Below, one piece after another: positions 209 to 25,307 of a stretch of 25,307 nucleotides of DNA. The DNA lies in IMG/VR virus record IMGVR_UViG_3300021373_000740, positions 1-25,307 of that record; one strand, given 5' to 3'. Below the pieces are notes generated by a model. It ran no database searches and was not told the DNA's origin. It saw only the letters and a program-made list of their open reading frames with translations. Made by a program: the position numbers and the translations under genes. Every line of letters begins with the position of its first letter. Positions within the stretch are counted from its first letter, which is position 1. This DNA is from a virus.

Positions 209-360
209 AGTGTCCGGAGTGCCGTAAGAACATGATGTGGACGGGCGACCACGACTCCGATGAGGATGACCGCCCGGGACTCATGATTTCATGGCGCTGC
301 GTCAACGAGGAGTGCGAGGTCCGCGCCGTCGATGTGCATTGGTCACTCGGGTCTAGCTGA
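205..360 (+). CDS. Small zinc-ribbon protein (51 aa)
   Basis: This short gene starts at ATG 205 inside the stop of the preceding gene and ends at TGA 358-360. The protein opens MKCPEC and has a second cysteine pair CVNEEC about 30 residues later, so CxxC-(~30)-CxxxxC can bind one zinc ion as a small zinc ribbon. An acidic loop (GDHDSDEDD) separates the knuckles. Small phage zinc ribbons with a CPxC, Trp, GDHD pattern are common, but their role is usually unknown; DNA or protein binding is the general expectation for the fold. Its last 18 bases overlap the 3' end of the giant minus-strand gene in convergent orientation, and I see no hairpin terminator between them. Confidence 0.72.
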   Translation: MKCPECRKNMMWTGDHDSDEDDRPGLMISWRCVNEECEVRAVDVHWSLGSS

Positions 361-9300: not shown

Positions 9301-12300
9301 GGCAGCCAATTTCTCTGCCCCCTCTTGGGAAAGAACCTTCCTCAAGGTGGTGACGAACTCACCCATGAGTGCATTCACATCAGCCCTATCGACGCTGTTA
9401 CGCAAGACAACGTGGAACGTCTCGTGCGCAATGGTGGTACCCGAAGCCAGTGGCGCGAAGATGTGTACCGTCTTGTTGTCCTGAGCGAGGAATCCAGCGG
9501 ACCGCTCTCCAGTCAGGCCGTTCTCTTGTGCTGCCTGCTGGTACGAAGCCTTGTCATTGTGGATGATGATGTTGGCGCCCTCGAAGTTCTTCGCCATAGC
9601 CTTCTTGGCGTTGGCAGCCAAACGCTTCAAACGCTTCAATGGCACACGCCCCTCCACCTCCGGCTCACCACGCACCTCTACGTCAGCAGACGCTTGGTCG
9701 AGGGTTGCAAGCCGTTTCTGATTGGCCTCGATATCCTTCTTGTTGTCCTCAAGGAAAGACTGCTCCACCTCCGTCAGCTCTACCTCATCGTTGAGCTTCT
9801 CGGCGATGGTCTCAAGGATAACGCCCTTGCGGTCTGGGTCTAGGCTCCCGTCCTCTTCGGCTTGGAGGTCTTCTTGGGTTGCCTCCCGTACCTCTTCGTC
9901 CACTTCCGTGCCAAATCCGGCTCGTTTGCCCACAGGTACCTTCGTTGTTCCTCGCTCTTGAACGGCATTGTCTTGTCTACGTTTTGCTAGTTCTAATGCA
10001 GCCTCTTGGTCGTTGTATACCCGAGCCTTGCGCAGCTGCCGTGGTGTGGCCTCTTGAATCTTGTTAAGGAAGTCCTGCTTACTGACGCTCTTGCCGTTGA
10101 ACTTGTATGCCCCGGGAGTATCGTATGTGGTGCGCAATGCAATCCCCTCAAGGTTGACCTGCTCACTAGGTAGAGATTGATTCTCTGCTATGTACGCAAT
10201 CTCGTCATTGATTTCGGTGATGCGCTTCCCAAAGACAAGCTTGGCATTACGTCCCCTTGACTCCAGAACTTCTTTGGCTTCGAGCAACTGCATAAGGCGA
10301 CCGAGGACGACACCCTGACTACCGGGCCTAGCTCCGGGCTTGCGACCAAGCAGTTCATTAGCATCACGACGAAGGCCCGTGTTCTTCCTAATGGCGTTGG
10401 CCTGCTCCGGCGTAAGCTTGCCGAGCTTCTCCATATTATCGGCCCAGTTCATGATGCGCTCGTTAGAGACATTCTCTCTAGCGAGGTTCATGGGGTCCAT
10501 AAGCTTAATGGCCAATTCGAATCCGGACTCGCTCACCTTCTGCTTAGCATAACCAAGAGAACCAAAGGCAGCACCCATACTGACACCCATACCGACAGCT
10601 CCGATGGCCTCGGCCATAATCTCTCTGAAGTTGGCGGTAGAGCCAGTGTATTCTCCGGTGGCTCCGATAGCTATGCGCTCGCCCAAAGCTTCGGTAAGTG
10701 GCTCAACAACAAGTCCGGTCGCAGCACCACGACCGATACGCTCTCCGGTACTGGCTATGCTTGCCGCTCGGCCAGCAACCTTACCGATAACAAAATTGGA
10801 CAGAGCCCCAGTAAGAGCGATAGGGATACCGCGCTTGTAACCGCGTTCCGCTGCCTTATCCCACAGCTCTTGGTCGTTCAATGCTTTGAGTGCAGAGTTT
10901 GGGTCCGCCCAATCGTAACCCATGCGCTCGCCCACCTCCAGCGTAGCGTTGCCCATCTCCAAAGCCAGCTCGGAAATAGGCATGCCGATATTAAACACTC
11001 CGATGCCCATACCCGCAAGTGCCCCGCCAAAGAAACCCAGAGCCGAGCCCGGAGCAGAACCCACAGCACCACCAATAGCTCCTCCAGCAACGGCGGCAGC
11101 AGGCAGCACCCGTGCCCAGATAGGTGCAAGCTGAGCCAAAGATTCCGCCGTAATGGCTGCGGTATACATACCGGGATTGTTGGCAAGGGCAGCGAGGTAG
11201 GAGTCCGTTGTGCCAGTCATATTGGCACGCGATACCACGCGCCCACGGCGCGGGTCTTGACTGTCCATAATCTCCGCGACCTCACGCATGGCTTGCTCCT
11301 CGGCGCCCTCGTCACCGATGGCATCGTAGTACCCGTACTGCATGAGGAGCAACCTAGACATAGCTCTACCGCGCTTCAGTCCGTTGGACAATGCAACCAT
11401 AACCTCTTCAATCCCATCGACATATTCTTGGGTGATTCCTTTGTCGTGCTGCTTGTCGTAGTACGTCTGAGCTTTCTCGTAACCGAGGGCGGCGGCCTGA
11501 CGCTGCGACGCAGTCTTGTTGTACCTAGTGTACAGGTCAATCATACCAGCCAGCTCGGCCTCAGTCTTCGGCTCGTAGTCAACAAGGTCTTCGAGGCGGA
11601 CGCCATACAGGTTCAGCGACTCTACTTGCAGCCTGTTTTGCTCGGCCTTGGCATCGCGGTTGATAGCGGCAGACTCCTCGCTCAACTCTTGGTACCTCTT
11701 GCCTAACGCCACATCGCGGTCCTCCTTGAACCGAAGCAACACGTTGTCCGCATCGAAAGCAGACTCTAGCCTAGACAGCTCCGCTTCCTTTTCATCACGC
11801 AACGTATTGATGTCGTCGCGCACCAAGTTGCCATCGATGAAATACTTCTGGTAAGATGCAGGTATCTCCTTTTCGTATCGCTTCCCCGGGGCCAGCTCCT
11901 CAAGGAACTTGAACTCCGAGCGCCTAGTGTCGAGCTCGTCCAAGAAAGCCATGTCGGCATCGTAGTCGCGCCCTAACTCCTGCGCCCTTTGCTGAAACGA
12001 AAGGTCCATAGGGGTCACGTTCTTCCAAGCTCCTGCCCCAAACTCTCGAGCCTCCTTTTCAGTATCAAAATAAAATACCTCGCCCCTTTTGAACGCCTCG
12101 TTTTGAGCCTCAATACCGAAGTCCAACTCCATCCAATCGTCAGGGTTGGTAGACGTAGTTCCTTTGGGGTCTTTCGGAAACAACGTGGGGTATGCAATAA
12201 ACTTTCCGTCAACATCTGCCGACGCCATCTTCACTGTCGATACGCCACTGGAATCTATGCGAGGTACAGGGCGTAACTCTTGCACCCGCAAGGATTTCTC

Positions 12301-13086
12301 TACGAAGGTCTGGTCGGTATCGCCTACATACGTGGCGTTCTCCCTAATCAGCTTTTCTAGCTTGGCTGCCTCGGTCTGCTTTATGTTTCCGTCCTCGTCG
12401 AGTTCAAGGCGTATCTCGACAGGCTTTCCGTCTACCCCGCTTGGGGCCATAGCCTTTACCACCTTAGACCCCGCTCGGGTCATAGCAAAAGGAACCTTGT
12501 CCTCCTCGAACTTGATTCCGTACGGTCCGTACGTTGCTTGCAGTTGTGACACCGCACTGGTGACGGAGCCCTCGGGGATGGTTACCGGAGGTAGGTCTGC
12601 GGTTATGCGCTGGGCCTCCTCCTCCCTTAGCTTACGTCGCTGCTCCTCAATCTCAGCTTCACGAGTATTGATGGCGGTAACGGCAGAGTCACGCTTGGCC
12701 TGTTCGGCAGGCGTTTCATACGGTGTGGGGGCCAGTTGCTGCCCGGTCAGTCCACGTACACGAGCGGCATAAGACTCTTGAAACGGTTGTCTAGCTGCAA
12801 TCCGTTGCTCCGAAGAACCAGCGTCCGAAACAGATTCCGTAACGACGGGCTCCTCTTTTTTTTTTACGTTGCCGATGAAGTCGTCAAGCGACAAATTGTT
12901 GACCAGCTCAGGGTCGGCATCAGCCAAAAGAGCATACGCCTTAGCGGCATACTCAGGGCTTTGAAGGTTCTCAAAAAAAGTCTCGACACTTACGTTCTCA
13001 GGAAAGGCCGGGTCATACTTGGAAAGGATATCATACGCCGTCGCGGAATAGTCTCCGGGGTTAACACGAGTAGGGTCTTGAGCCAT
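343..13086 (-). CDS. Giant polyvalent internal virion / ejection protein (4,247 aa) with multiple effector domains
   Basis: One uninterrupted frame of 4,247 codons starts at ATG 13086. Order by residue: 12-73 a pair of ~37-residue repeats; ~96-1140 helical body with a Gly/Ala-rich hydrophobic stretch (~660-700); 1148-1340 metallopeptidase with HETFH at 1221; 1379-1575 ADP-ribosyltransferase-like; ~1700-1920 second metallopeptidase with HEVLH at 1792; 1949-2340 phage domain with FGPKIG at 2166; 2432-2638 second ART-like; 2646-2777 GNAT; 2783-2907 third ART-like; 2913-3029 unrecognised; 3035-4247 helical region with ENYFPTR at 3754 and a membrane-like segment ~4108-4131. Near-identical AAEQRV linkers separate the modules. 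The gene follows two internal-protein-like genes, as gp16 follows gp14 and gp15 in T7. Hydrophobic segments plus peptidase and ADP-ribosylation modules are typical of phage polyvalent proteins packaged in the capsid and ejected with DNA (known for the class, inferred here). The length is extreme. No RNA-polymerase DxDGD motif was seen. Confidence 0.9.
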   Translation of the reverse strand: MAQDPTRVNPGDYSATAYDILSKYDPAFPENVSVETFFENLQSPEYAAKAYALLADADPELVNNLSLDDFIGNVKKKEEPVVTESVSDAGSSEQRIAARQPFQESYAARVRGLTGQQLAPTPYETPAEQAKRDSAVTAINTREAEIEEQRRKLREEEAQRITADLPPVTIPEGSVTSAVSQLQATYGPYGIKFEEDKVPFAMTRAGSKVVKAMAPSGVDGKPVEIRLELDEDGNIKQTEAAKLEKLIRENATYVGDTDQTFVEKSLRVQELRPVPRIDSSGVSTVKMASADVDGKFIAYPTLFPKDPKGTTSTNPDDWMELDFGIEAQNEAFKRGEVFYFDTEKEAREFGAGAWKNVTPMDLSFQQRAQELGRDYDADMAFLDELDTRRSEFKFLEELAPGKRYEKEIPASYQKYFIDGNLVRDDINTLRDEKEAELSRLESAFDADNVLLRFKEDRDVALGKRYQELSEESAAINRDAKAEQNRLQVESLNLYGVRLEDLVDYEPKTEAELAGMIDLYTRYNKTASQRQAAALGYEKAQTYYDKQHDKGITQEYVDGIEEVMVALSNGLKRGRAMSRLLLMQYGYYDAIGDEGAEEQAMREVAEIMDSQDPRRGRVVSRANMTGTTDSYLAALANNPGMYTAAITAESLAQLAPIWARVLPAAAVAGGAIGGAVGSAPGSALGFFGGALAGMGIGVFNIGMPISELALEMGNATLEVGERMGYDWADPNSALKALNDQELWDKAAERGYKRGIPIALTGALSNFVIGKVAGRAASIASTGERIGRGAATGLVVEPLTEALGERIAIGATGEYTGSTANFREIMAEAIGAVGMGVSMGAAFGSLGYAKQKVSESGFELAIKLMDPMNLARENVSNERIMNWADNMEKLGKLTPEQANAIRKNTGLRRDANELLGRKPGARPGSQGVVLGRLMQLLEAKEVLESRGRNAKLVFGKRITEINDEIAYIAENQSLPSEQVNLEGIALRTTYDTPGAYKFNGKSVSKQDFLNKIQEATPRQLRKARVYNDQEAALELAKRRQDNAVQERGTTKVPVGKRAGFGTEVDEEVREATQEDLQAEEDGSLDPDRKGVILETIAEKLNDEVELTEVEQSFLEDNKKDIEANQKRLATLDQASADVEVRGEPEVEGRVPLKRLKRLAANAKKAMAKNFEGANIIIHNDKASYQQAAQENGLTGERSAGFLAQDNKTVHIFAPLASGTTIAHETFHVVLRNSVDRADVNALMGEFVTTLRKVLSQEGAEKLAAKLDEFQKLYEAGQMNEEYVAEFFGELAAAYPTLDKKGKSVIARFLERLSKLLGLDITLPSDLTKRDQQVLSLLERLAGQVSRGETITARETGELAEMARSTSRKQTDDNLSAAEQRVDDFSDEQIQAMADEGVIFHFSEVDITKVLPEKLKRFALGYGFYFTGYALSDSVYRSFGDRFTMVNAEDFNLLDGDQTITEEQAKAIRDAAKMELEEVEEYDDYLLRFEIEQVLISLSDTKAGESWVDTFTNSRSDDRSIVAALVDEQLEVPTRIVQEMLGFDGVVYGADMVGKKAGAITVVWNFPKIDRAIIQPGQEPTRAAEQRTIGYRGEQETLDSIINRGLLGIGQDAEQSVKRASQIKVVSNDPSLNEFLEDDLFEGDLKEIAQEWFKGTRENVRRDVAKELLGRDYARRMAGDLLREHAGLRTDDVQWMPNLEVQAVRGGGFEIVLTPLTEAQKQALLDAQDAYESTRRHGLQYTAYENTDVMADGYFYATRGNRKIRRGTYGFAIGDQIHFAVSKTDASASNRVLYHEVLHGLLNVANNMDRAKVTEAARLLRDGLDGLEYAMSAEMEQAFDEFLSNYPKERMDEEFVVDFFGQLASGYRSMSAEARALVNRFVDAVYEIFNLKPQERSKIQLDKFEQYVQDALNALAQKVVSGETITDEDLSRISAENLTSATEGIGAAEQRVADLETSIGKSVEFAEESTFDNKIEFKRALQERFNQLVLPELEARYGITDSSELNDNLKEYLVDAYMNETLNAIAAYPDALGWYDSRITGAMSLMSLLHPELATDPDAASAFKIGLAITSNGNKVYDNFVEANRQYKYYKENGRFDESRSIGNQVGGILSNLKFANEALGVMSMEELTRFLTTKHKVGSLSYRDSAGNKKNLISGFGVNEEVYGAAVFGPKIGNGFFMNLYGVFDQLTMDRWFMRQYGRLTGTLLDFNQKKVDTATKRLARARKALLQRNSAKVEGLIGAFENLSDAELAQKVQKASMDIKKRAVLKSNPKLDEFRKASNNLAKLLEAEVEAPTPAKRRFINEVFSELQQKLKDENGIDITIADLQAVNWYPEKALYQTFKADQTQKSAKTETSDNEQPDYESAARKLVEKQGVTKEEIDGRQIERDDTARDTDQQRAAELLEDDEATSQLRDRILSIREEVTNDDLKAAEQRVDVETEGPNIVYRSGAVESKAESRGRMDGGRSTGHFGTGAYFFGDRESAEKYDDRDVTAVDISDYNLAPATYSLHDALEYANWKGGRAMFNDEPHTIGVEEVRLVEAANKIERNRGGMRIRRDDNGRRIPVPDLFDVVFDKYYRMMLPTAEAKRIAAEATRLYNEEGNIDSVSTSIMKALGYEGVNAVGTELDNSTYGTVIYDVSTEPKAAEQRVTVEEVEDKYGDFAPGTRKMIRIDGGRIEIAGNKTFDRSGIIELFVPEESRRQGIGTRLVERAIEEADGKLVGMASKDAAIDINYRLGMRYYKPEDGTEATLEETKKQRAENSYESIFMQTPEARQAGRRGEAAEQRVVYHVTFEENAEGIRNNGLMKDRPGTFERKTGGQFDTAGKTFAFEDLTDALAWAQMSKDMFPDNPLALVAVRRGDKVFDKDPSVFLGSGVFTQDEVTKDDILSVEPLTPYFRAKGTPMEGMFTPKAAEQRVVDPGVVDVLERYEFKPNKSLKNAELAPELNRNLQRFGYGVKQYGTRMNDFRVVSLDTGRAVDPKEIIAAGVEERAARLEEDRRMVEMERQRELEQRIIEIYNADERPFTGKDFESRAPEQRVAAAAMAEPGTIAELVAKGRELGLRDASIRSVLLKRFGKDNADAIDTALTEYFDMFRAIPEAFGNVEGGIEVGREIYDDVRRQLDEFARPKKPGRMTTRERTDRIEELRAKFPEQKNLSDTELLRKHPRQAVAPSIAEVRAEALNLLRNNRSFNEQTKEVQEQLLLAFDKTLQTSANKRVNTLMAQIRNNIRQRRKGESSAKAVRNELRKVINEMLPAGKYTKAEAKAIARLVSNVTEKNMLVQIQKVTDLLEKKAKADIKAELREIKKLDSRIRSERKYAEREARKVQNSLRKLINEVIPRTDYGKADIAKLTNLVASVNENNYEAKAEEVLKIVEKKRGQIRDSVIRDIAKLVAKSAKTSRTPSGKVRPRSLDAPGQAYFREANRILRAILNKDQSLIMDIASNLANNPMVDVATQKMLNGEKLTMREQQLVDQKSALDMFAGIQDKSLEEVEAILEDLKVDVGFSRANLKATRAARAARMAELREGAKAEVQDNWAGFATNEDGSAKTRNQLEADKTQKKTIGDALRENGLRAKYDALVEWAKEGKRLTPAGMAKSGSHITHVGALTGIMGEYFRENLYKRLGKMEERHLKGVFETKDKLDEMASTIEGIKNYKDITDLIFTSNPDGLVVNTKATGRRKLSTDEMMRIYALSKNPVQRAKLEAMGFTDEVMNEIVDTVDDRLLEFVDKTVDYLANDYYEGINDVYSKVNDINLGYIENYFPTRTQVKGDLSVKSKEETLSSTFFGPNAQVADALKERTDQKGEILMTQDLGFHGELGNHFNTMERFKAYAEGVQEMNAILSSDYTVALSGRLSADSMLNMLIAHGVTPDMFMSDMSFKGIDTLISKYTGASLAFKLMQIPKQATSLFAGFQQYRFGEKPNPVKDLIMFAFDYTVLLPQILLEGVSLGKYKGPIASIAKDSATFRARLESNFSGDVYGLTAGVSGRPRKVSAKDYTLYRRAGATLRKASGSATAFGDILGVLGYLPAYNRNRMRGMSQEEAIDKFNEYNETQQSRRPGERTPLQIRQNGLTRAFMAFTSSQILYLNNTLRHANNINKSIRKGEKVKAEDSRGFIFNAVMSSVLFTLASNIFVLLFGNDEEKERAFYDTLASPVKNFFAIPIFGAAIEEFYNLFVGNKYPTDVAINPLGKVMRDVKKVATKGEVAPAIKEVGELALGTNFDPGLSLINITQGEPIEPELYNLIGVPKSARPE
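4000..4350 (-). other. Domain: unrecognised ~117-residue module between AxEQRV linkers
   Basis: Residues 2913-3029. It starts with VVDVLERYEFKPNKSLKNAEL, has a short central portion with Gly/Tyr turns (FGYGVKQYG), and ends in a highly charged helix (EERAARLEEDRRMVEMERQ). I recognise no family. Its boundaries are set by the linkers on each side, which suggests an independent cassette. Confidence 0.4.
4366..4740 (-). other. Domain: ADP-ribosyltransferase-like module 3 (short)
   Basis: Residues 2783-2907. VYHVTFEENAEGIRNNGL has the YHxT...NA..I...GL pattern of ART/KptA-like folds, then FAFEDLTDALAWAQM and a final DPSVFLGSG...ILSVEPL core. At about 125 residues it is compact but complete-looking. 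It lies between AAEQRV linkers. Assignment is by pattern only. Confidence 0.45.
4756..5151 (-). other. Domain: GNAT-family N-acetyltransferase
   Basis: Residues 2646-2777. IIELFVPEESRRQGIGTRLVE contains the acetyl-CoA-binding motif RRQGIG (2696-2701) after a beta strand, and INYRLGMRYY is a plausible motif B end (the usual ...N.FYEKLGF... position). The module is about 130 residues, the normal size of a single GNAT. It sits between AAEQRV linkers. The substrate could be a host protein, an antibiotic-like small molecule or a nucleotide base; the sequence does not say. Confidence 0.75.
5173..5793 (-). other. Domain: ADP-ribosyltransferase-like module 2
   Basis: Residues 2432-2638. VYRSG (2442-2446) and the turn GHFGTGAYFFG (2465-2475), followed by a distal LGYEGVN...YGTVIYDV segment, match the layout of ART-like domains in large phage proteins. 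It differs enough from the first ART-like module to be a separate acquisition rather than a recent copy. It is flanked by AAEQRV linkers. Confidence 0.55.
6067..7242 (-). other. Domain: FGPKIG / TMDRW conserved phage domain
   Basis: Residues 1949-2340. FGPKIGNGFFMNLYG (from 2166) is followed by LTMDRWFMRQYGRLTG, then a helical part ending at NWYPEKALYQTF near 2326-2338. This combination recurs in phage proteins, and I recall it as a DUF7178-like domain; the exact family name is from memory. Its biochemical function is not known to me. A charged, disordered tail (~2340-2426) runs to the next AAEQRV linker. Confidence 0.5.
7327..7989 (-). other. Domain: polyvalent-type zinc metallopeptidase 2 (HEVLH)
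   Basis: Residues ~1700-1920. VLYHEVLHGLLN gives HExxH at 1792-1796, and EEFVVDFFGQL follows at 1850-1860, 58 residues downstream. Spacing and flanking text (EEFVVDFFGQLASGY, VSGETIT) parallel the first peptidase, so the two look like diverged copies of one module. Preceding residues 1585-1700 are helical and unassigned. Confidence 0.75.
8362..8952 (-). other. Domain: ADP-ribosyltransferase-like module 1
   Basis: Residues 1379-1575, bounded on both sides by AAEQR linkers. It shows an FHFSEVD strand (His 1398), the glycine-aromatic turn GYGFYFTG (1418-1425) and a distal strand pair around GFDGVVYG and VVWNFPKID. That order matches ART domains of phage polyvalent proteins (H, then Y in a G-x-Y-F-T turn, then a C-terminal core strand). 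The catalytic glutamate cannot be assigned with confidence, so activity is inferred from the fold pattern. Confidence 0.6.
9067..9645 (-). other. Domain: polyvalent-type zinc metallopeptidase 1 (HETFH)
   Basis: Residues ~1148-1340 of the giant protein. The motif TTIAHETFHVVL puts the zinc-binding HExxH at 1221-1225. About 57 residues later, EEYVAEFFGEL (1278-1288) offers the glutamate expected as third zinc ligand of a gluzincin-type fold. The module closes with VSRGETIT, which recurs after the second peptidase. It could trim partner domains, the internal proteins or host proteins; the substrate cannot be read from sequence. Confidence 0.8.
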
Positions 13087-16374: not shown

Positions 16375-17211
16375 TTAGCCGGGATACGACTTCATCACCT
16401 CACTCTTGGCTACGAACATCTCCACAGCTTCAGTGTCTTCGTTGGTCAAAGTAAAGACACCATAGTGCCCAAGCAGACCATTCGACTCGGCCTGTTGGTT
16501 CTTGATGCCCAACCAAAGCGGGTCGTTGATGCCGGGAGCAGCCCCACTACCGTCATGGGTGACGCGGTTGATTCCGTTAGGGATATCTACCTCGATGCTA
16601 TTGACATACCCCGCGAAAGTGATGGCGGGGTATTCGACCCCCACAGGCAACGCGAAATAAAAGGCGTCACCGCTGCCTGCCTCAAGCGGGTCACCCGCAC
16701 TAAGGATGCTGCCGATATCTGTGGTAAGCGGGAAGTTGACTACGTTGCCCACTACCGTTTGGCTCAAGCCAATGCCATTGAGTGAGCGCAAGGCATAGTC
16801 GTCAGGCTCAGCGGGGTTGTTATTGACCGTACGCACGAAAGCAAACCAGTCGCCCTCCTTCTTCTCAAAGAACTCTACGTCCATAAACCTCCCGTCCTGC
16901 TGGTCGGATACGAACGTAGCAGCCCAAGGTCGGTTGCCCTCTACAGACAACGTCTTGAAAATCTTGTTGACAATGGGCTCGTCGTTGAAGACACTCGTGA
17001 TGGTGCTGGGGTATGCTGCCGGCTCGCCCTCCCCGTCTACGGGTAGGCCGTAGAAGTTGTTGCGAACCTCGTTGGTATTGTGCCGGAAGATATTCCCGCC
17101 ACTAAACGTATACAGGTACTGGTTCATACCCTGAATCCACTCAGGCTCAAACGAGTAGAACGAAGGCCACCCCTCAGCAGGTGGGCTATATGTCAGCGTG
17201 TAGTTAGGCAT
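16375..17211 (-). CDS. Virion structural protein, tail-associated (278 aa)
   Basis: Start ATG 17211 overlaps the stop of the previous gene as TAATG; the stop is TAA 16375-16377. The N terminus has GWPSFYSFEPEWIQGMNQYL, then YTFSGGNIFRHN and RNNFYG, then TSVFNDEPIVNKIFKTLSVEG. This series (W-S-F-x-S-F-x-P, Y-x-F-x-G, H-N, N-x-F-Y-G, F-N-x-x-P) is one I associate with a conserved structural protein of Bacteroidota podoviruses, including crAss-like phages. The rest is beta-rich. No signal peptide or membrane segment is seen. It probably belongs to the tail or the stabilisation collar; its precise place is inferred from neighbours only. Confidence 0.6.
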   Translation of the reverse strand: MPNYTLTYSPPAEGWPSFYSFEPEWIQGMNQYLYTFSGGNIFRHNTNEVRNNFYGLPVDGEGEPAAYPSTITSVFNDEPIVNKIFKTLSVEGNRPWAATFVSDQQDGRFMDVEFFEKKEGDWFAFVRTVNNNPAEPDDYALRSLNGIGLSQTVVGNVVNFPLTTDIGSILSAGDPLEAGSGDAFYFALPVGVEYPAITFAGYVNSIEVDIPNGINRVTHDGSGAAPGINDPLWLGIKNQQAESNGLLGHYGVFTLTNEDTEAVEMFVAKSEVMKSYPG

Positions 17212-18141: not shown

Positions 18142-21100
18142 TCAGCAGTCGCAATTAGTGGTTATTATTTCTACGTATCCAGCCTCACCAGCAATGACGG
18201 CGGGGTAGGTGTCCGAGCATACCGTAGTGGATTGCTTCCCGGCAATGGTTATGTACGAGATAGAGCCTCCACACGCAGTGTATTGCATCGTTACGTTCTC
18301 GTTGTCACCGTTGTATATTCTGTATTCCTGACAGTTTGCGGCATCGCATACGCACGCGCAGCACGCATCCTCCGCGCGGGTGGCGTCGAAACACAGTGGG
18401 GTGGGAAGAACCGAAGAGTAGTCCCAGATGAGGTACAGATAATCTCCTGTATTCGGCATGGCAAAGTCAGCGGAATACAAGCTCGGTCCACCCACAGGGA
18501 TAATCTCAGTGGACGCGGACAGGATGGCGGTCAAGTCAGCCTGACCCCAGTCGTTGGCGCTACGGACATACCTAAACCGGTCCGAAGGCTTCAGGATGTA
18601 TGTGTCGTTACCAAAGCGGTTAGACCTCATCTCCACAGTAGAAGCGTCGGTAGGTATTACGCCACCGCCCTGTGGACCAGAGAATTCTGTGAACTGACTT
18701 ACGACGGGTACCGTAGCTCCGCTTACGAACTTTATTTGCTGGCTGTGCAGCGGAGAGACAAACGCCCCCTGCTCCCACCGATACTCGTTATGAATCAATT
18801 GACCGGATTCAGATGGGCGCGTCAGGGTGATGAGCTTAATAGTAATCTGGTCTGCATCTGGGCACGACACAGTGATGCTCAATACAAACCTATCAACACC
18901 GGCGTAGTCAATGTCAATGCCAACTTGGTTCTCCTGCACCAAGTCCTTATCTATAAGGGGTATAGGTGTCGGTGAGCTTTGGCTGATGTTCGCAGTAACA
19001 ACTGTATTGTTGTCATACGTGGTAGAAATGTCGATAGTGTCGGCGGGATTCGCTTGAGCAACAATCTCATAGGACACCGTAACATCACCAACTGAAGAGC
19101 CGACGTCAACGCAAAACGATGTGCCCGGTCGCTCAAGCAGAAACGTCTGCGTTACGCCACAGTCAATACACTCGATGGGCCCGCGTAGCTGGTTCTCGTT
19201 GCTGGCCAAGACGTACTCGTTCATATACGGGTCGTATCCGCCTAGCTTCTGCGTATTGAAGCTCTCGATAAACTCATCGCGGAACCAGCTCCGCATACCG
19301 TTTTCACTGATGACCTCGAGCTGCTCTTTTTGCTCATCGCCGTACAGGTGTATGACGGCACCGCGCTTGGCGTCAGTAAAGAACTTATGCGGTCCCCACT
19401 CCGCAAAGCTCTCGGGGTTGTTGCTGATACCAAAGTCCTCGATGCGGGCCACCTGCGTACCCAACACCTCAGGCACCGAAGCCACAACGCTCTCACCAGT
19501 GGTGTCTGTAAGGAGGTTCTTACCCGCCAAGACGTAGCTAATCTTATCCTCCTGCAACGTGAGGATATCGGTGCGCCTACCGAACAGCTTCTCTACAGGC
19601 CCATAGCTATCCTCCAGTGGCTTGAAGTTGAGCAAGCCAAGGTTGAACTCATTGAGCTTGTTGAGGTTCGTCTCATCGTTGTATACGCCGCTGTACGTCA
19701 GGTCGGCAAAACGCCGAATCTCTTTGTAGTCCTGCTCGCTGACGGTAGTCACCCTGTTCCCAAGAGTGATGGGCTTACCATTGATTGAGTCACGAATCTT
19801 ATAGCTCTCTACGCCATTGCCAAACGCGATACAATTGAAGAACCCCGTGTCAATGATGGCGTTCTGCGTAGCTGATTGGTTCTGTAGGTTTCCGGTGTGG
19901 TACCTATTGCCTGTGCCGGAATCCAATACAATATTATAAGAGGTAGGGGACTCATACCACAGGTCAGCGAGGGCATCTTGTGGAAGCGTTTCAAGGATGA
20001 GCGCGTCGTTGACCGTAACAATCTGCACGCGGAGCTTGACGCACGATTTCCTTCCGCCGCCTATGTTGGCTCCAGTTAAACCATTGCACGACGCTGTTCC
20101 TTTGATGACGAGTTGCGGTATGGCGCCGAGCGTATCTACCTTCAGCCTAACCGAAGACGCAAAATCGCCAGTGTCAAAAGCGGGCCAAGAGGTGTTTTCA
20201 GGGTCTACAACAACATCATATTCGCTGGTGTCACCGCCTTGAACAAACTGAGACGTTAGCCTAGTTATGACGTCGTCTTGGTTGTAGAAGAAGTCAGTGA
20301 AGTCGGTGTAGTCCTGCTGAGCGGTAAAGTATTCTTTGACGAGCAAAAACCTCGATTCACAGCTATTGTTTCCGTCTCCGACGCCCCTCCTGTCGACCTT
20401 AAATCCGATAAAGATTCTTGAGCCTGCACCAATAGAACCCGATAAAGTATCTACGGATACAAATGGATACTGATTAGTTACCCCCGAAATGATGCCTCCG
20501 AGAGGTCCTACGCATCCTTTCTGCCACTTTGAGTCGTATACCGCATTGGCGTCCGCATTGATGTCTATGTCGTCAGACTCAAACAACATATACGTACCGG
20601 CAATAGCAGGAATATCAGAGGGGTTTTCAGACAACTCTCCGACAGCGTATACCTTTTTCTCTTTTACCGTTACGTAAGTGCAGTCACCAATAGCGCCTTG
20701 ACAATCGGCCTTTACGACATACCTATCTCCCTTCTCCACCTTAGCGGCCTGCTCTCCCTCAAGGAGGCAGTACTTGCCACCGGCAAAATCAAAGAAGAAC
20801 TGACTGTAGATGGTCTCGTACCCCTCGCGGTCTGGCTTGATAACAAGCTTGTATCGGTCGGCCCAATATGGCGCTGGGTTCCAGAATGGAATCTGCACCC
20901 GCAGTTGATTGCGCATAATGGAATCTCCACACGGTATGTGTATCTGATTACGCTCGCTAACGAGCGCCGTACTGGAACGACCATACTCGTCCATATACAC
21001 GATGCCCACCTCATAGCTTCGGTTGCTGTGCAGGCTGCGCTGAGACCCTATAGAAAAGTAGTTGACGTACGTCTTTGCTGTATCCAGCTCTAAAACCTCA

Positions 21101-21480
21101 AAGGAATTGGTGGCCCCGCTACTATACTGAGGTATGGGAAACACCAACTGAAAGGTGTCATCGCTGATGACGGTACCACGGACAGGGTCGCCAAGGGCGT
21201 CAATTCCCGTGCCCAACAAGTTTTGCGGGTCCGGCGTACCTCCGGTAGCTGTAAGCGGGAAAGAGGCATTCCACGCGTTGGTGAGGATAGACTGGTTGGA
21301 GTTAGCAAACTGAGCTGGGTCAGTCTCGATTTGATAAGGCCACCCAATAGAATTTGAGAACCCCGGGCTAAGACACATATCGGACAAGGTGGCGTAGTCA
21401 CTGTCCAATACATAGCTCCACTGCACGGTACTCTCTGGGTAGTGGAGGTGGGTACAGCGCCGCCCCCTGATAAACTCCAA
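18142..21480 (-). CDS. C-terminal part of stabilisation / tail-tube-like protein (frameshifted; 1,112 aa as read)
   Basis: The frame is open from about 21525, but its only early starts are TTG 21480 and ATG 21378, neither with a ribosome site, so it is better read as the continuation of the gene at 22775. The protein includes SYEVGIVYMDEYGRSSTALVSE, a long beta-rich middle, and a segment SYGPVEKLFGRRTDILTLQEDKI...GYDPYMNEYVLA that looks like the beta-propeller-like part of large phage stabilisation / tail tubular B proteins. The last ~85 residues carry ten cysteines (DACCACVCDAANC ... TACGG ... TVCSD ... NCDC), a compact, probably metal-bound or disulfide-bonded end. The stop is TGA 18142-18144. 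Joined to the upstream part, the protein is about 1,540 residues. Confidence 0.75.
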   Translation of the reverse strand: MEFIRGRRCTHLHYPESTVQWSYVLDSDYATLSDMCLSPGFSNSIGWPYQIETDPAQFANSNQSILTNAWNASFPLTATGGTPDPQNLLGTGIDALGDPVRGTVISDDTFQLVFPIPQYSSGATNSFEVLELDTAKTYVNYFSIGSQRSLHSNRSYEVGIVYMDEYGRSSTALVSERNQIHIPCGDSIMRNQLRVQIPFWNPAPYWADRYKLVIKPDREGYETIYSQFFFDFAGGKYCLLEGEQAAKVEKGDRYVVKADCQGAIGDCTYVTVKEKKVYAVGELSENPSDIPAIAGTYMLFESDDIDINADANAVYDSKWQKGCVGPLGGIISGVTNQYPFVSVDTLSGSIGAGSRIFIGFKVDRRGVGDGNNSCESRFLLVKEYFTAQQDYTDFTDFFYNQDDVITRLTSQFVQGGDTSEYDVVVDPENTSWPAFDTGDFASSVRLKVDTLGAIPQLVIKGTASCNGLTGANIGGGRKSCVKLRVQIVTVNDALILETLPQDALADLWYESPTSYNIVLDSGTGNRYHTGNLQNQSATQNAIIDTGFFNCIAFGNGVESYKIRDSINGKPITLGNRVTTVSEQDYKEIRRFADLTYSGVYNDETNLNKLNEFNLGLLNFKPLEDSYGPVEKLFGRRTDILTLQEDKISYVLAGKNLLTDTTGESVVASVPEVLGTQVARIEDFGISNNPESFAEWGPHKFFTDAKRGAVIHLYGDEQKEQLEVISENGMRSWFRDEFIESFNTQKLGGYDPYMNEYVLASNENQLRGPIECIDCGVTQTFLLERPGTSFCVDVGSSVGDVTVSYEIVAQANPADTIDISTTYDNNTVVTANISQSSPTPIPLIDKDLVQENQVGIDIDYAGVDRFVLSITVSCPDADQITIKLITLTRPSESGQLIHNEYRWEQGAFVSPLHSQQIKFVSGATVPVVSQFTEFSGPQGGGVIPTDASTVEMRSNRFGNDTYILKPSDRFRYVRSANDWGQADLTAILSASTEIIPVGGPSLYSADFAMPNTGDYLYLIWDYSSVLPTPLCFDATRAEDACCACVCDAANCQEYRIYNGDNENVTMQYTACGGSISYITIAGKQSTTVCSDTYPAVIAGEAGYVEIITTNCDC

Positions 21481-22775
21481 GACGTATGGCGTATGCGAAG
21501 AGACATGCTCAATGAGTCTCCAATCTCAAGGTTCGCGAAGTTGTTGATGGTAAACTGAAGGGTAAGCTCAGGCTGCAAGCTCAATCCACCCAACAGGTAA
21601 GTCGTGGCGTTGGATACCGCGTAGGTAAACGTGCTAGACCCTAGGTCTTCCTTAATGTGTGTGGCAAAATAGTTGAGGCGGATAGGAACTCCGGGACGCT
21701 CAATAAGGTCGTAGCCCTCAAGGTAATTCCCATAGACAAGTCTGTTGCCCATAAGCGTCTGCGCTTTAGCCAACCGAGGCACATTGTCGTACAGACGAAG
21801 TATCTCGCTCTCATTAAGAATGGTGAAGATTTTGCTGTTGTCAAACTCATACGCAAACGTGGAGTTGTCCGCTATGCCGTCTTGCTGTTTGTTAAACTTT
21901 TCAATGACGCGGATGATGTTGTCATCCATCTCCTTGAATAGGATATCGAAACCCTTAACAAGGTTACCGCCAGTATTTATAGTGACGATGGCATTGTTGA
22001 TAGCGTTCTCCATACCCTCATTGGTGAGGCTTTCAGGAGAGAAAAAGAACCCTTGAGCAGAGAAGGCAGGGCCAGAAAACTGTGAGGTGGCAGAGTACTC
22101 GTCCTCTTCGTACCGATACCGATATCCGAAGCAGATGAATCTCTCCTCCATGTAGTTGTTCTCGGACTGAGTGTTAGAGACCGATACCAAAGGGGCCGTC
22201 CTTGGAGCAGCCTTAATCACAAGAATGCGCTCACCAATCTCCCCATTGTCTATGAATGCAGTGGGCTGCGGATAGGAGCGCGTAACATTGATGCGCCGTG
22301 GGGGGTTGATGTCGTCTGTGAAGAACAGCAGGTCGTCAACCAAGTTGATTCCCGTGAATAGATACTGAGGGTTGAAGTTCAGCGTTGTGTTTAGCCCGCC
22401 TCCGTCATCAATACTGACCACGTGATAGGTCAGCACATCGCTTGTAGTGTTGTACGAAACAACGAGGTCGAGCCTGCCAGTGGCCCCCTCAGTAAACGCC
22501 GGGTCATGCACAAACCAGTACATGGTCTCGTTGGCCCCGTCGCTATACGCCCCCAAACAGGTGGCGTTATCACTCAAGGGCGTGCCCGTAGGTGGGTAGA
22601 CCAGCGTAGTGAGCTGAGTGTTGCCCTTGCTATTCTCTACGGCACCAATCTCGGAGTCCTCGGTAGAACCCATGCGGATGTTCTGAGCATCGATATACTC
22701 TCCGTTCGGAACAAGGCGCTCGTCAACGCTCTTGTTCATCCGGCCCTTGATGAAGTTCCTTACCAGATTTGCCAT
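21090..22775 (-). CDS. N-terminal part of stabilisation / tail-tube-like protein (561 aa as read; true sequence to ~residue 436)
   Basis: Starts at ATG 22775 in a TAATG overlap with the preceding gene. The opening, VDERLVPNGEYIDAQNIRMG then SEIGAVENSKGN, is the classic start of large podovirus stabilisation / tail-tubular proteins, which wrap the neck and tail. YLFTGINLVDDLLFFTDDINPPRRINV is a further family hallmark. After about residue 436 (GGGAVPTSTTQRV onward) the text becomes Ser/Thr/Arg/Leu-rich and loses family character, so residues ~437-561 are a shadow frame. The true continuation is in the -1 frame, beginning RRCTHLHYPESTVQWSYVL. A single missing base at the G5 run explains this. 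Confidence 0.8.
   Translation of the reverse strand: MANLVRNFIKGRMNKSVDERLVPNGEYIDAQNIRMGSTEDSEIGAVENSKGNTQLTTLVYPPTGTPLSDNATCLGAYSDGANETMYWFVHDPAFTEGATGRLDLVVSYNTTSDVLTYHVVSIDDGGGLNTTLNFNPQYLFTGINLVDDLLFFTDDINPPRRINVTRSYPQPTAFIDNGEIGERILVIKAAPRTAPLVSVSNTQSENNYMEERFICFGYRYRYEEDEYSATSQFSGPAFSAQGFFFSPESLTNEGMENAINNAIVTINTGGNLVKGFDILFKEMDDNIIRVIEKFNKQQDGIADNSTFAYEFDNSKIFTILNESEILRLYDNVPRLAKAQTLMGNRLVYGNYLEGYDLIERPGVPIRLNYFATHIKEDLGSSTFTYAVSNATTYLLGGLSLQPELTLQFTINNFANLEIGDSLSMSLRIRHTSWSLSGGGAVPTSTTQRVPCSGAMYWTVTTPPCPICVLARGSQILLGGLIKSRLTQLSLLTPTSLSSPTRGMPLSRLQLPEVRRTRKTCWARELTPLATLSVVPSSAMTPFSWCFPYLSIVAGPPIPLRF
21463..21467 (-). other. Frameshift site: G5 run (C5 on plus strand)
   Basis: On the coding strand the run TCAGGGGGCGG marks the switch from the 22775 frame to the frame of 18142-21480. 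Inserting one G gives the smooth reading TSWSLSGG-RRCTHLHYPE. A canonical X-XXY-YYZ slippery heptamer is absent (A-GGG-GGC fails at the first base), which favours a homopolymer sequencing or assembly error, or a real deletion, over programmed frameshifting. Confidence 0.65.
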
Positions 22776-23698
22776 TACTTAATCCACTTGTCGCGACCAC
22801 GCAGGTTCATAAGCAACCGTCCCGGGTGGATGTTGCTGATGCGAATCTTAGCGTTGCGTAGAAGCGCGTTCTTCTTTTTGCGGGCCCGGCTTACAATGTA
22901 TTCCTGTACGCCGAGCTTGGCGTCAAGGATAGCGTATTGGATATACGCATATACGTAGTCCTCAAACAGCTTATTGACCGTGATAGCGGTATTGTCACCA
23001 CCCTCCATACCGTCGCTGACGTACTCGAGGATGCACAGCTCGTCAGCCATATCAGAGCTGAAGTTGATGACACCACCCTTACGGTCGATGCTGAAGGTGG
23101 GGTTGGCGTTAGCCGTCTCCGTATTCAATCCATACCGAGCGCCGATATTGTAATCGAAATACCAATCGCCATCGCAGCAGTATCCAAACTGGCCATCGAA
23201 CTGGCTGTTGCCGTTGATGTAGATGCTCTTCTTGGTTCCCGTGATGCGTTCGTAATCGATGGTAGAATCCTGAGGGCGTAGCGTAGCTCCCGTCTCATCG
23301 AATAGGATGCGGCAGTTGTTGTCCTGTAGGTATGCTGAACTCCAGTTCGTCTGAATATTCTCCGTTAACGGTCGGAGGATTCCGTCCTTATACAGGGAGA
23401 TGCGGACCCAGTTGACATAGTCGGGAGGAAGCACAAAGCGGAGCCTATCGCATACGCTAAGCTCGAGAATCTTAACCTCCTTGAACGCATCGTAGTTGAG
23501 CTCTTGGATAGCTCGCTTGGCATGGAACAACACCTTGTACCGCTCCTCGTTATTGACCAAGGAGTGGTTGCCGTTATACATCAACAGGAAGTTGTTGACG
23601 ATATCCTGCAACGAGACGTACTGGTAGCTGCCCCAGTTGGCATCCTCGGGAGCGATGCCCCCGTTCTCATAATACTGGTAGTCTGTGATGTATGCCAT
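22775..23698 (-). CDS. Neck / ring-like structural protein (307 aa)
   Basis: The ATG at 23698 overlaps the previous stop (TAATG) and the TAA at 22775-22777 overlaps the next start in the same way. Sequence marks are VSLQDIVNNFLLMYNG, LFHAKRAIQELNYDAFKE, and LPPDYVNWVRI in the first 110 residues, and a basic C-terminal end (RARKKKNALLRNAKIRI ... LRGRDKWIK). This arrangement (F-H-A-K-R-x-I-Q-E-L-N-Y-D, L-P-x-D-Y-V-x-x-V) recurs in structural proteins of crAss-like and other Bacteroidota podoviruses, where it is placed in the portal-proximal ring or neck. It precedes the stabilisation protein, as an adaptor would. Alternative: tail tubular protein A-like. Confidence 0.68.
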   Translation of the reverse strand: MAYITDYQYYENGGIAPEDANWGSYQYVSLQDIVNNFLLMYNGNHSLVNNEERYKVLFHAKRAIQELNYDAFKEVKILELSVCDRLRFVLPPDYVNWVRISLYKDGILRPLTENIQTNWSSAYLQDNNCRILFDETGATLRPQDSTIDYERITGTKKSIYINGNSQFDGQFGYCCDGDWYFDYNIGARYGLNTETANANPTFSIDRKGGVINFSSDMADELCILEYVSDGMEGGDNTAITVNKLFEDYVYAYIQYAILDAKLGVQEYIVSRARKKKNALLRNAKIRISNIHPGRLLMNLRGRDKWIK

Positions 23699-24411
23699 TA
23701 CTGCTGTTCTTCTGCGTTAGCGTACTGATAGACATCGCCCTCGCGGATGCTCATGCCTGCCATCTGCAAGATGCGATAAACCAATCGGGGCTCGTCATCG
23801 ATGGGAAGCTCAAAGTCTTGGTAGTCGGTAGACGACTGATTGAATACAGGCTCTCCGTTAGCGAGCGTGATGTACGTCCACTTCGGGTCGAAGGGATACC
23901 GCACATACTGAGCCACCACATCGCCCGGTGCATACGTCGTTGCCGTAGGGTAGATGGTCACGACCTGCCCGGCAGCGGGGTTGTCGATGGTATACGCGGG
24001 GTACTGCGCCGACGGAGCCGTCAAGTTTGAGTTGGCCAGCAGGGTGATGCGGCTGTGCGTAACGGGCTCAGCCTCAGCGCCATTGACCAATACCTTGTTC
24101 AGCAGGTAGTAGTCGTCACCTGTGGTAGCTTGACTAGGGGTGAAGAACAGGTTGTTTGAATCCTGCGTCAGGGGACCAGACACGGAGAAGATGTCGATGT
24201 CTTCGTTGATGCCCTTGGTCATATTGGCATAGTCCGTACCAGACATACGCGCGTTCTCTGCGTTGATGGCTTGGTTGAGACCCGTGAAGTAGTTCTCGAA
24301 AATCTCTAGCTGCGCCTGCTTAGCAAACAGGTTGAAGTCGGAAGGAGAGACGTAACCGTAATTGTTCTTGTTGAGAATCGACAATACGGTTTGACGGACT
24401 GAATCAATCAT
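23698..24411 (-). CDS. Neck / adaptor-like structural protein (237 aa)
   Basis: Starts at ATG 24411, 13 bases after the stop of the CHU_C gene, and ends at TAA 23698-23700. The first 60 residues (MIDSVRQTVLSILNKNNYGY, SPSDFNLFAKQAQLEIFENY) form helices typical of a phage head-tail connector or ring protein; NKxNxGYxSPxxFNxFAxQAQ is a pattern I recognise from Bacteroidota phage structural proteins. The middle is Thr/Pro/Ala-rich and beta-like (TIYPTATTYAPGDVVAQYVRYP), and the end is acidic and helical. Together with the next gene it likely forms the ring below the portal. The portal itself is not in the window. Confidence 0.66.
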   Translation of the reverse strand: MIDSVRQTVLSILNKNNYGYVSPSDFNLFAKQAQLEIFENYFTGLNQAINAENARMSGTDYANMTKGINEDIDIFSVSGPLTQDSNNLFFTPSQATTGDDYYLLNKVLVNGAEAEPVTHSRITLLANSNLTAPSAQYPAYTIDNPAAGQVVTIYPTATTYAPGDVVAQYVRYPFDPKWTYITLANGEPVFNQSSTDYQDFELPIDDEPRLVYRILQMAGMSIREGDVYQYANAEEQQ

Positions 24412-24415
24412 TCCC

Positions 24416-24423
24416 TAAAGATA
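24416..24423 (-). promoter_or_regulatory. TAnnTTTA element before the 237-aa gene
   Basis: TATCTTTA on the minus strand lies in the 13-base gap after the CHU_C gene stop and 4 bases before ATG 24411. It is the third copy of this pattern among the three real gaps. No -33 element is visible; GGGA follows directly but is too close to the ATG for a Shine-Dalgarno site. Confidence 0.28.
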
Positions 24424-24424
24424 A

Positions 24425-25307
24425 CTATCTCAAGACCACTAAGTGGCCGAGGCGCTCCACCCACCGAAGCGTATGCTTATTGCGAGCCACAAAGCTGTAG
24501 GTGTATATATCGTCGCGAACCATAGCCCGCTCGTAGCCACCGTCCCAAACGGAATCGAAGCTATTGGAACTCCAAACCAAATCGCCCCATCGCGAGAAAA
24601 CCTTGACCTGTACGTTGTCCCAGCAGTCGGGTGGCGTCTCAACTTTCCACGCATCATTGACGCCGTCGTTGTCTGGCGTAAAGCCATTGGGGATATATAC
24701 CGGGCACTCGATGACATCCAAGCATGGCTCACCCGTGGCGCAATCGACCTCCATAATCAGTGTGTCTATGACCGTGATGTAGGTGGTGTCATAGAAATAC
24801 CAGTTGATAGGAACCACGATGGTATCGGGAGGTAACTCCACGTATACAGTCTCCGTAACGACAACGGTATCGGGGGGCAGCTCGACATACACGGTATCGA
24901 TAACCACCTCGGGCACAGGGTCGCCGCAGTCGCCCACTACCACCCAGTTGTCCAAAAAGTTTTGGTCTTCATACAGTCCCGAACCCCACGGGGTGCCGTC
25001 CCCATTTACTCCTACCTCGGCCCAACCTCCGTCAGACGCATACATAGTTTGCCCGTAGCTAATCTGCCAGATGACAGCTTGGATGCTATACCCTTCCGTA
25101 ACCCAGTACGTGATGACGCTCTCGAGGTTGCAGTACATCTGTCCCGATGTAGGCCCGTCGACACAATCAGCTTGGTATGGATTGAATATCGGAAACGTAA
25201 CCGTATCGCCAGCATAGTAAGGCGGCACAAGCGATTCGTCGTACAGGTTGGTCCAGTTCGTTGGCGACTCCGTAGTAGTGGCGGTATATATCCATCCCGG
25301 GTGGTTG
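24425..25307 (-). CDS. Partial protein with C-terminal CHU_C / T9SS type B sorting domain (294 aa visible)
   Basis: The frame is open to the right edge, so the N terminus (and any signal peptide) lies outside; GTG 25228 is only an internal codon. The stop is TAG 24425-24427. The visible N-terminal part is aromatic and beta-rich with a few cysteines. Next comes a Pro/Val linker holding a 14-residue tandem repeat (TVYVELPPDT). The last ~90 residues read YIPNGFTPDNDGVNDAW, VQVKVFSRWGDLVW, DSVWDGG, DDIYTYSFVA, GHLVVLR. This is the gliding-motility-associated C-terminal domain (CHU_C, TIGR04131/PF13585 type), which marks T9SS type B cargo in Bacteroidota. The gene sits 13 bases upstream of neck genes, so it belongs to the virion operon. 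It may be a head fibre or surface adhesin; alternatively it is exported by the infected cell. Confidence 0.85.
   Translation of the reverse strand, partial: NHPGWIYTATTTESPTNWTNLYDESLVPPYYAGDTVTFPIFNPYQADCVDGPTSGQMYCNLESVITYWVTEGYSIQAVIWQISYGQTMYASDGGWAEVGVNGDGTPWGSGLYEDQNFLDNWVVVGDCGDPVPEVVIDTVYVELPPDTVVVTETVYVELPPDTIVVPINWYFYDTTYITVIDTLIMEVDCATGEPCLDVIECPVYIPNGFTPDNDGVNDAWKVETPPDCWDNVQVKVFSRWGDLVWSSNSFDSVWDGGYERAMVRDDIYTYSFVARNKHTLRWVERLGHLVVLR
24812..24898 (-). repeat. Tandem 14-residue repeat (DTVYVELPPDTVVV / ETVYVELPPDTIVV)
   Basis: Two copies lie at 24857-24898 and 24812-24853, separated by one codon, and differ by D/E and V/I. The period is 45 bases. They join the N-terminal region to the CHU_C domain and probably form an extended linker. 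DNA identity is lower than protein identity, so the repeat is not recent. Confidence 0.8.

What the first reader, a model, noticed from the sequence alone, without database searches (positions are those of the whole stretch)
24425..25307. T9SS type B / gliding-motility sorting domain in a phage morphogenesis operon
The right-most gene ends with a complete CHU_C domain (PNGFTPDNDGVND, RWGDLVW, WDG, GHLVVLR), the tag by which Bacteroidota export proteins through T9SS. It lies 13 bases upstream of neck genes. A phage could use the host surface-display route to place a protein on the infected cell (for example superinfection exclusion), or carry the domain on the virion to mimic host surface proteins and dock on the gliding machinery.
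Basis: partly seen in the sequence, partly recalled or inferred. Interest (0 to 1): 0.82.

Follow-up and report, generated by a model that had tools for sequence, protein, structure and literature searches.

The report
Phage proteins tagged for host export
A marine relative of crAssphage carries, at the head of its late tail ("neck") genes, a protein built to be pushed onto the surface of the infected bacterium by the host's own type IX secretion machine; it belongs to a large, previously undescribed family in which phages keep swapping the payload and the export tag.

Summary
Window 24425-25306(-) ends in a complete CHU_C / type B T9SS sorting domain (Pfam E 1e-15; TIGR04131 E 7e-13), 13 bp before the neck genes of a crAss-like phage. 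The gene is cut by the contig end. Forty-four IMG/VR loci carry relatives, and full copies begin with a Sec signal peptide followed by a ~200-aa domain (NT) that matches no Pfam, PHROG or PDB family. The contig is not chimeric. Of 174 NT proteins found, all 164 not cut by a contig end finish in CHU_C; 89 of 91 distinct complete ones have a signal-peptide pattern just before NT (virion-gene controls 12 of 462). The gene is accessory: L048, 95.6% identical upstream, lacks exactly this gene. It sits before neck genes, before terminase, or elsewhere in several unrelated phage types. Signal peptide, NT and CTD recombine as modules (NT 94-96% identical with CTD 38-40%, and the reverse). No phage record checked carries a PorP/SprF shuttle. 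Best reading: a late-expressed effector exported to the infected cell's surface using a host shuttle, possibly for superinfection exclusion (untested); virion display is unlikely. Phage-encoded T9SS cargo was reported before (Cryophage type A; BACON gut phages), so this is a new variant.

The parts
24425..25306 (-). T9SS type B cargo gene, 5'-truncated by the contig end (about 85 codons incl. signal peptide missing)
   Evidence: complete homologues L002, L004, L005
24902..25306 (-). C-terminal two thirds of the new NT payload domain (about residues 85-219 of the full protein)
   Evidence: alignments A1 and A4; AF2 model pLDDT 87 / pTM 0.88; no Pfam, PHROG or PDB match
24695..24901 (-). D-T-V-Y-V-E-L-P-P-D-T linker, where module crossovers fall in relatives
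24428..24694 (-). CHU_C / TIGR04131 type B C-terminal sorting domain
24412..24424 (-). 13-bp gap to the neck gene, same length in all 18 distinct neck-slot copies; no terminator
23698..24411 (-). neck/ring protein (phrog_14543); gene that directly follows the empty site in L048
22775..23698 (-). neck/ring protein (phrog_13977)
21090..22775 (-). muzzle protein, N-terminal part (PF25731; phrog_14478)
18142..21480 (-). muzzle protein, second part in another frame (phrog_14478)
16375..17211 (-). muzzle C-terminal-domain protein (PF25729)

Best explanation
It is an accessory (moron-type) late gene of crAss-like and other Bacteroidota phages. It encodes a modular secreted effector: Sec signal peptide, NT payload domain, extended linker, type B T9SS signal. 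Steps: (1) transcribed together with the neck or terminase genes late in infection (inferred from the gap, orientation and lack of a terminator); (2) exported by Sec and the signal peptide removed before Q-C-D (inferred from sequence); (3) the CHU_C domain is taken up by the host T9SS and a host PorP/SprF shuttle, because the phage encodes none (inferred from homology and the absence of PF11751); (4) the NT domain is displayed on, or shed from, the surface of the dying cell. The payload most likely changes the surface to the phage's benefit, by masking a receptor or occupying or titrating the scarce shuttle/gliding-adhesin machinery, so that rival or progeny phage do not adsorb. Export is the well-supported part (about 0.8); superinfection exclusion is only the leading guess for function (about 0.35).
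For: CHU_C above both curated cut-offs. Signal-peptide pattern directly before NT in 89/91 distinct complete members versus 12/462 virion proteins. All 164 NT ORFs not cut by a contig end finish in CHU_C. Purifying selection on both domains, median dN/dS 0.06-0.17. Exact presence/absence of this one gene between near-identical phages: L048 versus L137, 95.6% identity upstream, 94.6% downstream, only the gene missing. Same family in several phage types: neck slot 18 copies, terminase slot 42, opposite-strand slot, and phages with other terminase, head or DNA polymerase genes. Modules swap: NT 94-96% with CTD 38-40%; CTD 100% with NT 49%; signal peptides also exchanged at the QCD boundary. No PorP/SprF in 14 phage records, 10-15 in each of 3 Bacteroidota genomes. 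[quoted passage not shown] the two shuttles examined were scarce at native level (PMC12618676); type B proteins anchor through PorP/SprF (PMC9143113).
Against: No secretion, expression or phage-exclusion data exist for any member; no cultured phage with it was found. Phage CTDs are at most about 40-47% identical to host CTDs over their length, so recognition by a host shuttle is not assured. Late timing is inferred only, and late expression is unusual for classical superinfection exclusion. A terminator hairpin stands directly upstream of the gene in the neck-slot phages checked, so its promoter is unclear. The NT fold gives no functional hint.
Confidence: 0.6

Rival explanations
1. Virion decoration or head-fibre protein: the gene lies among capsid and neck genes because the product is built into the particle, and CHU_C is kept as a host-surface mimic or docking module.
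For: Location between head auxiliary and neck genes; BACON-domain proteins of gut phages near head genes were proposed as capsid decorations, some beside T9SS-tagged proteins (PMC6949934).
Against: Sec signal peptide in 89/91 distinct members versus 12/462 virion proteins; the same protein also sits before terminase or on the opposite strand, so no fixed structural-gene neighbour; close relatives with the same neck genes lack it.
Confidence: 0.1
2. T9SS decoy: overproduced CTD occupies scarce PorP/SprF shuttles or the translocon and stops export of host gliding adhesins, with the payload secondary.
For: Native levels of two F. johnsoniae shuttles are low and limit secretion of overproduced type B substrates (PMC12618676); phages bring a CTD without a shuttle.
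Against: NT is present in every complete member retrieved by NT and is under purifying selection like the CTD; a pure decoy would not need it. The CTD is swapped while NT stays 94-96% identical, which points to the payload as the selected function.
Confidence: 0.2
3. Secreted or surface adhesin that benefits the infected cell or virocell (attachment to particles, polysaccharide binding), i.e. an auxiliary host-function gene rather than an exclusion factor.
For: Type B cargo are mostly known or predicted adhesins (PMC12618676); NT is predicted to contain an immunoglobulin-like beta core; long extended linker typical of surface proteins.
Against: NT is nearly absent from host genomes (1 hit in 399 Flavobacteriales, 0 convincing in 395 phylum genomes), unlike ordinary host adhesins; co-location with late genes suits a lytic-phase role.
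Confidence: 0.25
4. Artefact: chimeric contig joining phage and host DNA.
For: CHU_C is normally a host domain, present in 398 of 399 Flavobacteriales genomes searched.
Against: Dozens of independent contigs show the same junction, with the same 13-bp gap in 18/18 distinct neck-slot copies; NT-CHU_C genes recur in large phage contigs of 42-199 kb.
Confidence: 0.01

Closest known systems
Cryophage T9SS type A cargo genes (Bellas et al. 2020, PMC7468147)
   Same: phage-encoded proteins with a T9SS sorting domain, variable between near-identical phages; [quoted passage not shown]
   Different: type A (not type B) signals; three different enzyme or PA14 payloads in one phage; here one new payload family shared by several phage types, with type B tags and traceable module swaps
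T9SS sorting-domain proteins near head genes in BACON gut phages (de Jonge et al. 2019, PMC6949934)
   Same: T9SS-tagged proteins next to the head-gene block of Bacteroidota phages
   Different: BACON payload, discussed as possible capsid decoration; sorting-domain type not examined here
Host type B cargo such as SprB, Fjoh_3952, PG1035 (PMC12618676, PMC9143113)
   Same: Sec signal peptide, variable body, CHU_C/TIGR04131 at the very C-terminus
   Different: host cargo is commonly paired with an adjacent PorP/SprF shuttle gene; the phage genes are orphans, short (about 340-600 aa typically) and carry the NT domain
Predicted protein A0A7S9STS8 of Virus NIOZ-UU157, annotated 'gliding motility-associated C-terminal domain-containing protein'
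   Same: NT-like fold by Foldseek (E 3e-10, 25% identity) plus the CHU_C annotation; an existing database entry of the same kind
   Different: only an automatic annotation; its genomic setting and family were not examined here

Membership tests
T9SS type B (CHU_C/TIGR04131) cargo | CHU_C domain above the curated cut-off | tested here: met
   PF13585 58 bits vs 27; TIGR04131 48.5 vs 35
T9SS type B (CHU_C/TIGR04131) cargo | domain at the extreme C-terminus | tested here: met
   domain region runs to the stop codon at 24425
T9SS type B (CHU_C/TIGR04131) cargo | N-terminal Sec signal peptide | tested here: met
   window copy truncated; complete near-identical copies have MKRWLLLLYxPFSSYA|Q; 89/91 distinct members (own pattern heuristic, not SignalP)
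T9SS type B (CHU_C/TIGR04131) cargo | adjacent PorP/SprF-like shuttle gene (common, not obligatory: F. johnsoniae has orphan substrates) | tested here: not met
   PF11751 in 0 of 14 phage records; positive control 3/3 Bacteroidota genomes
T9SS type B (CHU_C/TIGR04131) cargo | T9SS-dependent export shown by experiment | not testable with these tools
   needs a secretion assay
Crassvirales (host genome of the gene) | crassvirus muzzle and neck genes in crAss order | tested here: met
   PF25731, PF25729, phrog_14543/13977/14478 in the window; TerL-portal-MCP order in L007
virion structural protein | present in purified virions | not testable with these tools
   needs proteomics; signal peptide argues against it
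superinfection exclusion protein | blocks a second infection when expressed alone | not testable with these tools
   no assay available; inference only
phage-encoded T9SS cargo (Cryophage kind) | sorting domain in a phage gene that varies between near-identical phages | tested here: met
   type B here; L048 empty site, module swaps

The most novel reading that the evidence does not exclude
A dedicated family of phage surface effectors that, late in infection, ride the host T9SS. The payload domain is almost confined to phages, and phages exchange the C-terminal signal as a 'shipping label', perhaps to fit the PorP/SprF shuttle of each new host, while keeping the payload, thereby closing the infected cell to other phages or disabling gliding adhesins.
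Probability: 0.35. Interest if true: 0.82.

Novelty: new variant of a known kind. Interest (0 to 1): 0.64.

Why it matters
It would show that phages of Bacteroidota, including relatives of crAssphage, recruit a secretion system limited to their hosts' phylum to place proteins on the infected cell. The natural swaps between payload and tag give ready-made pairs to test which CTD fits which PorP/SprF shuttle, an open question in T9SS biology, and offer a new NT domain whose target may be a phage receptor or the gliding apparatus.

Tried and rejected
Chimeric contig: rejected (many independent contigs). Tandem repeats in the window's linker: none found. First AF2 job on full-length proteins: poor (pLDDT 56), not used. 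Fold search of the good NT model: best PDB matches are lamin-type Ig folds at Z 5.7, within the level that unrelated models reach, so no fold claim; a family not listed there is not excluded. Close NT homologues in 84,980 species genomes by peptide pattern: none confirmed; a second scan returned host proteins that match only the CHU_C and linker part. Marginal NT hit in G706 (E 6e-4) is spurious. One real NT hit in a Flavobacteriales genome (G043) lies about 1 kb from a contig end in a frame fused to a hydrolase; it could be a host gene or an assembly join. In the 400-genome searches only the top few candidates per genome were scored, so rare host copies could be missed. Phage CTDs against sampled host CTDs on a tree: 3 phage/host changes versus about 46 in shuffles, so few acquisitions and long residence in phages (short domain and biased host sample, so only suggestive). 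Isolate phages in INPHARED carry no NT gene; CHU_C was found only in two uncultured huge phages and one faecal contig.

Full report
Observation. The minus-strand ORF 24425-25306 is open at the contig end and ends in a complete CHU_C domain (Pfam 58 bits against a cut-off of 27; TIGR04131 48.5 against 35). Thirteen bases after its stop codon starts a phage neck gene (phrog_14543), followed by phrog_13977 and the crAss-type muzzle (PF25731, PF25729).

The missing part. IMG/VR holds 44 loci with relatives of the protein. Contigs 95% identical to the window in DNA (L002, L004) contain the whole gene, 377 aa in L002: signal peptide MKRWLLLLYLPFSSYA before Q-C-D, a domain of about 200 aa (here called NT), a linker of repeated DTVYVELPPDT-like units, and CHU_C. 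In the wider family 89 of 91 distinct complete proteins have a signal-peptide pattern directly before NT; the same rule rings in 12 of 462 TerL, portal, capsid and neck proteins from the same loci. It is a home-made rule, not SignalP. In the two exceptions (L140, L201) the NT lies inside a longer protein.

A family, not a single gene. A pattern scan for NT and one for CHU_C brought further loci. Of 174 ORFs with NT, all 164 not cut by a contig end also have CHU_C; the other ten run off their contigs. NT has no convincing match in Pfam, PHROGs or PDB sequences. AlphaFold2 predicts it well (pLDDT 87, pTM 0.88), but fold searches give only weak Ig-like matches. Among viral models two match well: an unnamed one (A0A516LPX6) and one from Virus NIOZ-UU157 already annotated as gliding-motility C-terminal-domain protein. 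Both NT and CTD are under purifying selection (median dN/dS 0.06-0.17).

Where it sits. Among 93 distinct complete genes, 18 lie before the neck gene with the same 13-bp gap, 42 lie before terminase, some overlapping it by a few bases, and others are elsewhere, including on the opposite strand beside a divergent terminase. Terminase and portal of the second and third settings belong to the same PHROGs (6681, 6547), while other loci have unrelated terminase, head or DNA polymerase genes. The three isolate or complete genomes inspected that share the neck gene (Elemovirus, Maribacter phage Panino, MW202828) have other genes or nothing in that slot.

An exact empty site. L048 is 95.6% identical to L137 (the contig of L004) over 5.4 kb up to a terminator hairpin, then resumes at 94.6% thirteen bases before the neck gene; the only thing missing is the cargo gene. 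L048 also aligns to the window from 24423 onwards, just behind the cargo stop codon. So the gene is a clean accessory insertion between a terminator and the neck operon. Of the nine loci with the most similar neck gene (88% or more) six have it and three do not.

Module swapping. L025 and L022 share NT at 94% but CTD at 38%; L172 and L342 96% and 40%; L131 and L159 have identical CTD and adjoining linker but NT at 49%. The breaks fall in the linker, and signal peptides are exchanged at the cleavage site. One NT cluster pairs with six CTD clusters. CTD cluster 3, that of the window, occurs only in the neck slot (18/18). This suggests that NT is the payload and the CTD an exchangeable address. 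On a tree with sampled host CTDs the phage CTDs change label only three times (shuffles about 46), so most CTD diversity may have arisen in phages; the domain is short and the host sample biased.

Export route. Published work shows that type B CTDs carry motifs necessary for secretion and rely on PorP/SprF-like shuttles; the two shuttles whose native levels were examined were scarce, and a shuttle can accept a substrate that resembles its own (PMC12618676). Type B proteins are thought to be held at the surface by PorP-like proteins (PMC9143113). The phage records have one CHU_C each and no PorP/SprF (0 of 14), while three Bacteroidota genomes have 10-15 shuttles. The phage cargo must therefore use a host shuttle, if it is exported at all. 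This step is inference.

Host counterpart of NT. In 399 Flavobacteriales genomes one has an NT domain (G043), on a contig with ordinary host genes but close to its end and in a frame fused to a hydrolase; in 395 genomes of the phylum the single weak hit is spurious. NT is therefore largely, though perhaps not strictly, confined to phages in what was searched; in those searches only a few candidates per genome were scored.

Prior art. Phage-encoded T9SS cargo was described for Cryophage (three type A genes, with superinfection exclusion suggested; PMC7468147), and T9SS-tagged proteins near head genes in BACON gut phages (PMC6949934). No paper in the library searched describes type B cargo in phages or this NT family. 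Hence 'new variant of a known kind'.

What is shown and what is inferred. Shown: domain architecture, recurrence, empty site, module swaps, selection, lack of a shuttle in 14 records. Inferred: late transcription, Sec and T9SS export, surface location. Guess: superinfection exclusion or interference with the gliding machinery.

Noticed in passing
window 21420-21438: The muzzle gene, one 1801-aa frame in relative L007, is split into two overlapping frames here (21090-22775 and 18142-21480); either a sequencing error or a real frameshift.
   Followed up: partly
window 343-13086: A single 4247-aa ORF at the end of the late genes; Pfam finds only a weak GNAT acetyltransferase match, and two HExxH-like motifs are visible by eye.
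   Followed up: partly
L137:11281-11310, L007:9708, L238:6487: A UUCG-type terminator hairpin (GCCACCTTCGGGTGGC plus T run) stands about 20 bases before the cargo start codon; in L048 and L047 the same hairpin stands before the neck gene instead.
   Followed up: partly
L043:13147-15219 (-): Next to the NT-CHU_C gene lies a second secreted-looking protein with a weak type A T9SS tail (PF18962, E 4e-4), so this phage may export more than one T9SS cargo.
   Followed up: no
LR745206.1 and LR756502.1 (634 and 642 kb uncultured phages): Each of two huge phages has three places similar to the CHU_C part of the window protein.
   Followed up: no
MT839536.1:274-549: A 4.2-kb phage record from human faeces encodes a CHU_C-like domain.
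   Followed up: no
L385 (G043:C47), about 1 kb from the contig end: A Flavobacteriales genome has an NT domain in a frame fused to a hydrolase beside ordinary host genes; host copy or assembly join.
   Followed up: partly
L004:8231-9686: Three small genes of unknown function (100, 112, 273 aa) lie between the head auxiliary gene and the cargo gene; L048, which lacks the cargo gene, also has a 273-aa gene just before the neck gene, inside the 95.6%-identical stretch.
   Followed up: no
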